From the NCBI GenBank assembly GCA_020012075.1, contig DWUP01000165.1:1-33895 (forward strand): a stretch of 33,895 nt of DNA, written 5' to 3'. This document shows positions 6,458-31,859 of the stretch, piece after piece. The notes under the pieces are model-generated. The model was not told the origin of the DNA, made no database searches, and saw only the letters and a program-made list of their open reading frames with translations. This stretch comes from Candidatus Avibacteroides avistercoris (GTDB lineage Bacteria > Bacteroidota > Bacteroidia > Bacteroidales > Bacteroidaceae). The stretch's first letter is position 1. Each line of letters starts with the position of its first letter. The translations under genes were made by a program, and so were the position numbers.

Positions 6458-6521
6458 CGGACTTCCGCCCCGTGCGTGCTGGGTCTGTGCTGCGCTATTG
6501 GGGTGCGGTGCCATGCCGGAT

Positions 6522-6586
6522 GGCATACAATGTTTATGCCCGTGGCATACGGTGCTGTTGCCGTGGCATACGACCATTTTTGCGGC
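6522..6586. repeat. Three tandem ~22-bp GGCATAC repeats (family 2, locus 1)
   Basis: ggcatacaatgtttatgcccgt | ggcatacggtgctgttgccgt | ggcatacgaccatttttgcggc. Confidence 0.7.
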
Positions 6587-15849: not shown

Positions 15850-16025
15850 TGTGCTTTTTCGGTAAGCCGCTCAGTTTTCTTCAATGCCGGTCACCGGCAC
15901 GGCTGCCGTGCACGGATGTATATAATATGATATGGGCCGCTCCGCCTGACGGCATGCCGGGTGGGTGTGTGCCGGATACAAAACTGCCTGCCCGCCGCCT
16001 GAACTCACTTTCCCCCGCACGCAAA

Positions 16026-16109
16026 GTATATTCGCAACTTTCGAATGTACATTCGCAAGCTGCGAATGTATATTCAAAACTTTCGTTTATATATTCGCAA
16101 CTTGCGAAT
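16026..16109. repeat. 21-bp tandem near-palindromic repeat array A (4 units)
   Basis: GTATATTCGCAACTTTCGAAT / GTACATTCGCAAGCTGCGAAT / GTATATTCAAAACTTTCGTTT / ATATATTCGCAACTTGCGAAT. Confidence 0.9.
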
Positions 16110-16218
16110 ATAGTTTATGTCCTGCCTTCGGGAAGTTTGCCCGCCGTGCAACAGCGTTTTGTGTGCCGGGCAGGTGGTTTTAAGGGGCGGGCAATGGGCA
16201 TGGTAAGCAAATAGTTTG

Positions 16219-19619: not shown

Positions 19620-19972
19620 TGGCAGTCGGCCGGTCTGTCGCTGCCGCAAGGCAGAGGAAAGTCTGGGCAACACAGAGCGTCCCCCTTCTTAAAAGGAAGT
19701 TGCCCGCGAGGGTGAGACAAGCGTAGAAGAAAATAACCGCCCGGGTATTCCCGGGTAAGGGTGAGAAGGTGAGGTAAGAGCTCACCAATCCTGTGGTGAT
19801 GCAGGAGTTGTACGCCCGGGGAGTTGCAAGACCAAGTAAACCGGCTATAAGGATTGCTCGTCCGTGCCGGAGGGTAGGTTGCTTGAGCATGATGGTGACA
19901 TTATGCCGAGATAAATGACAGACACAGTCTGAACTATGACTGTACAGAACCCGGCTTACAGACCGACTGCCA
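19620..19972 (+). ncRNA. rnpB: RNase P RNA, bacterial type A
   Basis: 5' tggcagtcgg pairs with 3' ccgactgcca; conserved CR-I gaggaaagtctgggcaacacagagc and CR-V/3' gccgagataaatgacag...acagaacccggcttacag. Confidence 0.95.
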
Positions 19973-19996
19973 TTTTTAATTGTTAATATTGGTATT

Positions 19997-23712: not shown

Positions 23713-23857
23713 GGCAAAAACGTGAAACGAACCCCCGTGACGTCCCGAAATGTGGCATAAGCTGGGCAAAAACCTCATCGCCCGCACACAAACCCGCCGG
23801 CGTCTGACATCAAACCGCTTTGCCCGGGACATAAAGTTGCCTTGGGTGGGACATAAA

Positions 23858-23941
23858 GTAAAAACGGAAGTTGCGAACGTATATTCGCAACTTCCGTATA
23901 TACATTCGCAAGTTTCGTATGTATATTCGCAACTTGCGAAT
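23858..23941. repeat. 21-bp tandem near-palindromic repeat array B (4 units, first degenerate)
   Basis: GTAAAAACGGAAGTTGCGAAC / GTATATTCGCAACTTCCGTAT / ATACATTCGCAAGTTTCGTAT / GTATATTCGCAACTTGCGAAT. Confidence 0.9.
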
Positions 23942-24097
23942 TAACTTTATCTGCGGTGTCCGCCAAGTTTATGCCGCACGTTGTGGCACTTTGTGTCAGA
24001 CTCCGCCGGCAATGGCACCCGGCATCGTCGGTGCGTCGCCCGTGTGCATTTGGCTCAAAGAACGTGTCATGACGGGTGGTATATAGTTTTTATTCCT

Positions 24098-28363: not shown

Positions 28364-28502
28364 AATGCTTTTGATGATTTGTGAGTGCCGTGCCGTCTGG
28401 GCATGGCATGGCAAATGTAATAACATTGCACATCACGTCCAACAGCGTGCGGCATAAACTTGTGCGTCACGGCGGATAAACTTCATTTGCCCGGTGTGTG
28501 AA

Positions 28503-28565
28503 CTACATTCACAAGTTTCGTTTATACATTCGCAACTTTCGTATGTATATTCGCAACTTGCGAAT
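28503..28565. repeat. 21-bp tandem near-palindromic repeat array C (3 units)
   Basis: CTACATTCACAAGTTTCGTTT / ATACATTCGCAACTTTCGTAT / GTATATTCGCAACTTGCGAAT. Confidence 0.9.
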
Positions 28566-28673
28566 ATACTTTATGTCCTGTCGAGGCCGGTTTTGTGTGC
28601 GGCCTTGTGCAAGTTTGCGAGGCATGTCCGCGGCTTTGCATCAGGCACGGCCGCTGCGCAGTGTGCGTCGGGG

Positions 28674-31800: not shown

Positions 31801-31851
31801 AGCATACAATGTTTTCACTCATGGCATACAATGTTTCTGCCTGTGGCATAC
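31801..31851. repeat. Three tandem ~22-bp GGCATAC repeats (family 2, locus 2)
   Basis: agcatacaatgttttcactcat | ggcatacaatgtttctgcctgt | ggcatac... Confidence 0.75.
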
Positions 31852-31859
31852 GATGACAT

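What the first reader, a model, noticed from the sequence alone, without database searches (positions are those of the whole stretch)
16026..16109. Array A: four 21-bp tandem units built on an ATTCGCAAcTTGCGAAT palindrome, between a TonB receptor and fabD
Seen directly: four head-to-tail 21-bp units, each a degenerate palindrome. The last unit forms a perfect 23-bp dyad (TATATTCGCAA-C-TTGCGAATATA, 16090-16112). 21 bp is about two helical turns, so the dyads would fall on one DNA face, as expected for cooperative binding of a dimeric protein. The same family recurs at 23858 and 28503. It has no association with cas, transposase or phage genes and is not explained by the annotated features. Inference: an undescribed, genome-dispersed regulatory or nucleoid-binding array.
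Basis: partly seen in the sequence, partly recalled or inferred. Interest (0 to 1): 0.8.

Follow-up and report, generated by a model that had tools for sequence, protein, structure and literature searches.

The report
Phased DNA arrays beside HU-fusion genes
The repeat is one of about 21 copies in this bacterium of a precisely built 230-bp element, four palindromes spaced two DNA turns apart with matching arms on both sides; it is most likely the docking site of an unstudied HU-type chromosome protein whose own gene carries the same element in front of it, and in sister species these elements lie where the chromosome has been broken and rejoined.

Summary
Array A (core 16030-16109) is four 21-bp pseudo-palindromes, flanked on both sides by mirror-image arms of 22-bp half-site units. 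About 21 such elements lie in this genome; 19 have exactly four units. The exact motif is absent from 80 relatives. Two sister species carry roughly 90 homologous elements each ("family b"), with the same arms and architecture but a different half-site (CARAA instead of CGCAA). A second 21-bp family ("a") coexists in all three. The likely binder was found. Each of the three genomes has exactly two HU-wHTH fusion genes (Pfam HU-HIG). One has a b array ending about 80 bp upstream of its start in all three; the other has an a array upstream in all three. A remote genus shows the same pairing with an unrelated motif. So the arrays are probably operator/nucleoid sites of these proteins (inferred, no biochemistry). 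Between the two sister species gene order is broken at 24/29 b loci against 13/70 array-free intergenic regions, and usually a b array lies at the partner site too. Arrays B and C in the window are re-paired junctions of this kind. Whether the proteins drive the recombination, or repeat homology alone does, is open.

The parts
16030..16109 (.). Array A core: four 21-bp pseudo-palindromes (ATTCGCAACTTTCGAAT, ATTCGCAAGCTGCGAAT, ATTCAAAACTTTCGTTT, ATTCGCAACTTGCGAAT)
15960..16029 (.). left arm of A, about three 22-bp half-site units facing inward (...GCACGCAAAGTAT)
   Evidence: alignment of 42 arms; outer limit approximate
16110..16179 (.). right arm of A, about three 22-bp half-site units (ATAGTTTATGTCC...GAAGTTTGCCC...GTTTTGTGTG)
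   Evidence: outer limit approximate
23862..23941 (.). Array B core, four units, between divergent NAD synthase and arginine decarboxylase genes; re-paired junction relative to sister genome G001
23792..23861 (.). left arm of B (GGGACATAAAGTTGCC...GGGACATAAAGTAA)
   Evidence: outer limit approximate
23942..24011 (.). right arm of B (TAACTTTATCTGCGG...AAGTTTATGCC...ACTTTGTGTC)
   Evidence: outer limit approximate
28507..28565 (.). Array C core, three units, upstream of peptidase S46 gene; re-paired junction relative to G001
28437..28506 (.). left arm of C
   Evidence: outer limit approximate
28566..28635 (.). right arm of C (ATACTTTATGTCC...)
   Evidence: outer limit approximate

Best explanation
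Array A is one of about 21 copies of a dispersed, dyad-symmetric element of about 230 bp. It is most likely the binding platform of a sequence-specific HU-type nucleoid protein: the HU-HIG protein (HU domain fused to a winged helix) encoded at G000:C120, about 209 aa. Proposed working: each 21-bp palindrome holds one dimer whose winged helices read the TTGCGAAT-type half-sites. Single half-sites in the arms extend the assembly outward at 22-bp steps. Because all sites lie two helical turns apart, they stack on one face and the HU parts bend the DNA into one compact complex. The protein represses or adjusts its own gene through the array in its promoter. Its paralogue does the same with family a. 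Shown here: anatomy, copy number, fixed unit count, species-specific motif at conserved positions, pairing of each HU-HIG gene with its own array family, and the association of family b with gene-order breakpoints between the sister species. Inferred: physical binding, dimer stoichiometry, bending, autoregulation, and any role of the protein in recombination.
For: Architecture: 19 of 21 arrays in this genome have exactly 4 units of 21 bp, with mirror-symmetric arms in 22-bp steps and position-specific conservation that fades outward. G000 copies look like independent draws from a degenerate motif (nearest-neighbour identity 0.869 against 0.856 simulated), so sequence is free but layout is kept. 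An excess of 4-unit repeats occurs essentially only at 21 and 22 bp in sister genome G001 (66 and 66, against 0-2 at 19, 20 and 23-25 bp; shuffles 0). Binder: G000, G001 and G003 each hold exactly two long HU-HIG genes. HU-HIG#1 has a b array ending 79-80 bp before its start codon in all three. HU-HIG#2 has an a array upstream in all three. Only 2.0% (b) and 2.7% (a) of 859 G001 gene starts have such an array within 200 bp upstream. In another genus (G007) an HU-HIG gene has a 4x22-bp CATATGATCATATG array 47 bp upstream. Congener G002, without a/b arrays, has no HU-HIG, only ordinary HU. HU-HIG#1 is 98.6% identical between G001 and G003, which share the CARAA motif, but 54.6% between them and G000 (CGCAA), where the median orthologue is about 80% identical. 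The AlphaFold2 model gives an HU fold plus a C-terminal HTH-type domain.
Against: No binding data. Families c and d (22 bp) have no HU-HIG partner, because only two HU-HIG genes exist, so similar arrays can exist without one. G009 has 19 PF18291 matches but its arrays are not next to them. In HU-HIG#1 the HU part diverged more (48%) than the presumed reading domain (69%) between G000 and G001. The three-genome pairing is partly shared ancestry, not three independent events. Model confidence is moderate (pLDDT 75, pTM 0.41). The G001 HU-HIG#2/array pairing rests on coordinates alone, as that contig was not read.
Confidence: 0.68

Rival explanations
1. The elements are MITE-like mobile DNA, a Bacteroidaceae counterpart of BrickBuilt, spread by a transposase acting on the arms; the HU-HIG pairing is coincidental.
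For: Dispersed intergenic copies with inverted arms; family b cores in G001 are near-identical copies (nearest-neighbour 0.975 against 0.908 expected); presence/absence differences exist between G001 and G003.
Against: No clean empty site or target duplication seen in ten compared loci; one 'empty' G001 site keeps arm remnants. Copies with identical cores have different arms directly outside. For 8 of 10 G000 b arrays with an orthologous neighbour in the held half of G001 an array lies beside the same gene. G000 copies show no copying signal. Conservation is strictly phased and fades outward, whereas transposon ends are normally conserved at the tips. No Y1 (REP-type) transposase in the five genomes.
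Confidence: 0.12
2. Family b is primarily a site-specific recombination system (shuffling sites), and the phased palindromes are recombinase sites with arm-type accessory sites.
For: Gene order broken at 24/29 b loci against 13/70 without arrays (p=2.7e-9; 22/27 against 6/37 for gaps of 300 bp or more); a b array at the partner site in most cases, both flanks in 8 loci; symmetric sites would allow orientation-independent exchange; three G001 junctions re-paired as arrays B and C of the window.
Against: No dedicated recombinase: G000 has only two tyrosine recombinases, both of a conserved type also present in the genomes without a/b arrays, and no serine recombinase. Family a, of the same architecture, is not at breakpoints (1/7). 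Between G000 and G001 the excess at G000 b loci alone is not significant for gaps of 300 bp or more (8/8 against 18/27, p=0.08).
Confidence: 0.13
3. Breakpoints are passive: short near-identical repeats recombine by ordinary homologous recombination or slippage, whatever their function.
For: Family b cores in G001 share exact repeats with median 72 bp, in G003 53 bp; the diverged family a is not at breakpoints.
Against: Breaks persist for arrays without exact repeats of 55 bp or more (8 of 10 anchor tests). It does not explain the fixed 4x21 layout or the HU-HIG pairing, so it can only explain the rearrangements. It is compatible with the best explanation.
Confidence: 0.45
4. Arrays are ordinary regulatory operators of a transcription factor controlling the adjacent genes.
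For: Most arrays lie upstream of at least one gene; an array upstream of fabD is kept in G000, G001 and G003, although its type differs.
Against: Neighbours are functionally mixed (fabD, NAD synthase, YidC, DnaB, RF3, HisRS, TonB receptors, peptidases); 9 of 45 b arrays in G001 lie between convergent genes.
Confidence: 0.15

Closest known systems
HU-HIG (PF18291) proteins, described in silico in Bacteroidetes; HU/IHF nucleoid proteins
   Same: The candidate binder scores 81 bits against PF18291 and folds as HU (5lvt, 6n2l).
   Different: As far as I recall no DNA target of an HU-HIG protein has been reported (no paper on it in the open library). HU is largely non-specific and IHF sites are asymmetric singles; here sites are arrays of four palindromes with arms.
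BrickBuilt MITE of Porphyromonas gingivalis (PMC4596501)
   Same: Dispersed intergenic tandem repeats of about two helical turns in a Bacteroidales genome, about 19 copies, with flanking leader and tail.
   Different: 23-nt unit AGAYCATARTATCCTCTCRTRTG, copy number 1 to 22.8, different leader and tail of up to 318 nt, IS-type inverted repeats. Here 21 bp, four units fixed, mirror-image 22-bp arms, no such inverted repeats.
REP/BIME elements with RAYT transposases
   Same: Intergenic palindromic repeats in small clusters.
   Different: No Y1_Tnp/RAYT gene in the five congeneric genomes; strict 21/22-bp phasing without spacers.
MatP/matS, Noc/NBS and similar dispersed chromosome-organising sites (from memory)
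   Same: Species-wide dispersed palindromes read by one nucleoid protein.
   Different: Single sites confined to a domain; here tandem arrays spread along every long contig, several families per genome, with rapid motif turnover.

Membership tests
BrickBuilt MITE | 23-nt unit with its consensus and variable copy number | tested here: not met
   21-bp unit, 19/21 arrays with exactly four units, unrelated consensus (consensus from PMC4596501)
MITE (general) | terminal inverted repeats with target-site duplications and clean empty sites | tested here: not met
   inverted arms exist, but no clean empty site in ten orthologous comparisons; arm remnants at one 'empty' site; few pairs were comparable
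REP/BIME-RAYT | RAYT (Y1_Tnp, PF01797) gene in the genome | tested here: not met
   0 of 5 genomes
CRISPR | repeats separated by unique spacers, cas genes | tested here: not met
   units abut with 4-bp linkers; no cas genes among flanking proteins scanned
Structured RNA element | match to an Rfam family | tested here: not met
   only RNase P at 19622-19974 in the window
Operator/nucleoid array of an HU-HIG protein | binder gene carries its own array | tested here: met
   HU-HIG#1 with b and HU-HIG#2 with a in three genomes; G007 in another genus
Operator/nucleoid array of an HU-HIG protein | array family absent where the HU-HIG gene is absent | tested here: inconclusive
   G002 lacks both; G004 has one HU-HIG gene and other arrays, pairing not readable; c and d families have no HU-HIG partner
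Operator/nucleoid array of an HU-HIG protein | protein binds the array in vitro and in vivo | not testable with these tools
   needs EMSA, DAP-seq or ChIP-seq
Site-specific recombination system | dedicated recombinase gene | tested here: not met
   only two conserved tyrosine recombinases and no serine recombinase in G000; genome 88% complete
Site-specific recombination system | exchange at a fixed point within the site | tested here: inconclusive
   G001 and G003 elements are too diverged: orthologous arms no more alike than random

The most novel reading that the evidence does not exclude
In these Bacteroidaceae each HU-winged-helix paralogue owns a private, genome-wide set of phased palindrome arrays whose sequence changes in concert with the protein. 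In the currently homogeneous family the assembled arrays gather at distant loci and act as recombination hubs, so that gene blocks between arrays are shuffled as units while their order changes: a protein-specified chromosome-organisation and rearrangement system.
Probability: 0.3. Interest if true: 0.92.

Novelty: new variant of a known kind. Interest (0 to 1): 0.78.

Why it matters
HU-HIG proteins form large families in some Bacteroidota but, as far as I know, have no known DNA target. This gives a concrete target, its geometry and a species-swap prediction (CGCAA against CARAA) that can be tested in vitro within weeks. It also offers a system in which a nucleoid protein and dozens of its sites change together within one genus, and a candidate cause for why gene order in this genus breaks where it does.

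Tried and rejected
Searching relatives for the same consensus found nothing in 80 genomes, in genome contigs or in viral contigs: the motif, not the element, is species-specific. A simple MITE reading was tested by orthologous alignment and not supported. Site-specific recombinase and RAYT searches gave no dedicated candidate. Misassembly as the cause of the apparent breakpoints was tested: breaks persist for arrays without long exact repeats, GC skew keeps one sign along three long G001 contigs across most b arrays, and the longest exact repeat between G000 b arrays is only 19-39 bp. The idea that arms travel with their genes was not supported: orthologous arms 0.50 identical, random arms 0.475, p=0.46. 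In G000 against G001 the b loci (9/9 broken) do not exceed other long gaps significantly; seen from the G001 side, b is 16/16 broken against 15/50 for array-free sides (counted per anchor, not per locus). Literature searches found no description of these arrays or of HU-HIG targets.

Full report
What is there. Array A is real: four 17-bp pseudo-palindromes with 4-bp linkers, exactly 21 bp apart, at 16030-16109. Arrays of the same family lie at 23862-23941 (four units) and 28507-28565 (three units). Shuffled sequence never approaches this. In the whole genome (1.99 Mb, 201 contigs, 88% complete) the two-unit pattern has 57 forward and 58 reverse hits, the reversed control none. I located 21 arrays; 19 have four units, one five, one three.

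The arrays are cores of a larger element. Aligning the 42 flanks shows that both sides carry inward-facing units at 22-bp steps, 'ATAC TTTAYGTCC..G..GNAAG TTTATGTCC...', with near-invariant TTT at +4, +26 and +48 from the core and conservation fading by about +75. Left and right arms are mirror images, so the whole element of about 230 bp has dyad symmetry, with all sites two helical turns apart. G000 copies are no more alike than independent draws from the column composition, while layout is fixed. This pattern points to selection for protein binding rather than recent copying.

Relatives. The G000 motif is missing from 80 relatives, including four congeners. Yet upstream of fabD two congeners, G001 and G003, have a four-unit 21-bp array with a different palindrome. 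A scan for any periodic array shows an excess at 21 and 22 bp in G001, none of it in shuffles (short 12- and 15-bp periods and a few 18-bp ones also score, with some 15-bp hits in shuffles, and were not pursued). Four families account for it: a (YTRMAWW half-sites, 21 bp), b ([17 protein letters not shown], 21 bp, with the same GACATAAAGT/ACTTTATGTC arms as the G000 arrays), c (CATNSNATG, 22 bp) and d (TTGTTAGT..ACTAACAA, 22 bp, always three units). In 1.13 Mb of G001 there are 29, 46, 40 and 23 of them, nearly all intergenic. The G000 arrays are the b family of that species: the arms match, and of ten G000 arrays with an orthologous neighbour in the held half of G001, eight have an array beside the same gene, six of type b and two of type a. 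So positions are kept while the half-site changed in concert. Isolated four-unit 22-bp arrays with other motifs were seen in 20-kb samples of further genera; two of those (G013 at 16093, G014) lie inside predicted genes and should be discounted.

The likely binder. Among genes beside G000 b arrays one encodes an HU-HIG protein (PF18291), an HU domain fused to a winged helix. A search of 12 genomes showed that G000, G001 and G003 have exactly two long HU-HIG genes each plus ordinary HU. HU-HIG#1 has a b array ending 79-80 bp before its start codon in all three; HU-HIG#2 has a family a array upstream in all three (in G001 the second pairing is by coordinates only). About 2% and 2.7% of G001 gene starts have such neighbours. 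In genus g4 (G007) an HU-HIG gene has a 4x22-bp CATATGATCATATG array 47 bp upstream. Congener G002 has neither a/b arrays nor an HU-HIG gene. HU-HIG#1 is 98.6% identical between G001 and G003, which share the motif, and only 54.6% between these and G000, whose motif differs; the median orthologue is about 80%. The change is larger in the HU part (48%) than in the winged helix (69%), so the tie between protein change and motif change is suggestive only. AlphaFold2 gives an HU fold and a C-terminal helix-turn-helix domain with moderate confidence.

Breakpoints. Family b arrays mark where gene order differs. Between G003 and G001, 24 of 29 b loci are broken against 13 of 70 array-free gaps, 1 of 7 with a, 0 of 3 with c and 1 of 9 with d (p=2.7e-9; for gaps of 300 bp or more 22/27 against 6/37, p=1.8e-7). 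In eight loci both flanking genes map to different G001 places, each beside a b array. In the window, G001 junctions (NAD synthase|b|other), (Arg decarboxylase|b|peptidase S46) and (other|b|OMP) are re-paired as (NAD synthase|B|Arg decarboxylase) and (peptidase S46|C|OMP). Misassembly does not explain it: the effect persists without exact repeats of 55 bp or more, and GC skew is mostly of one sign along long contigs. For G000 against G001 all nine b loci are broken, but so are many other long gaps, so for the window's own genome the association is weaker. Family b cores in G001 are near-identical copies while the arms just outside differ, which fits frequent exchange between copies. No dedicated recombinase was found. 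I therefore regard homologous exchange between repeats, perhaps helped by protein-mediated gathering, as most likely, and keep a site-specific system as a rival.

Verdict. The regulatory-promoter version and the family assignment are not supported. Binding itself is untested.

Noticed in passing
window 31803-31859 and 6513-6571: 22-bp repeat arrays of a different family (c: CATACAATG-type units), the first between the methionyl-tRNA synthetase and dnaK genes; same family as about 40 arrays in half of sister genome G001.
   Followed up: partly
G001 (L087-L146) and G003 (L177-L196): Family d: three 22-bp units TTGTTAGTCGCACTAACAA, always exactly three in G001 (23/23), near gene ends; at some orthologous gaps one species has c and the other d. 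No HU-HIG partner found for c or d.
   Followed up: partly
G004 loci L157-L166: About 12 four-unit 22-bp arrays in 145 kb built from two kinds of word (GATGTACGCCATC and GATCGGCTCGATC types), absent from the other congeners; G004 has one HU-HIG gene whose upstream region could not be read.
   Followed up: no
L254:5764-5844 and L218:2851-2910: A G003 contig identical to G001 in both flanking proteins, where the b array has four units in one and three in the other: a clean one-unit difference, or possible cross-binning of MAG contigs.
   Followed up: no
window 19622-19974 (+): RNase P RNA (bacterial class A), complete, between an alpha-amylase family gene and a BrkB-family gene.
   Followed up: no
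G009:C1 (for example 1105985-1106062, 1210355-1210454): A complete AT-rich relative has about 14 loci of AAAGCTATGCTTT repeats at 22-bp steps and 19 PF18291 matches, not adjacent to each other.
   Followed up: no
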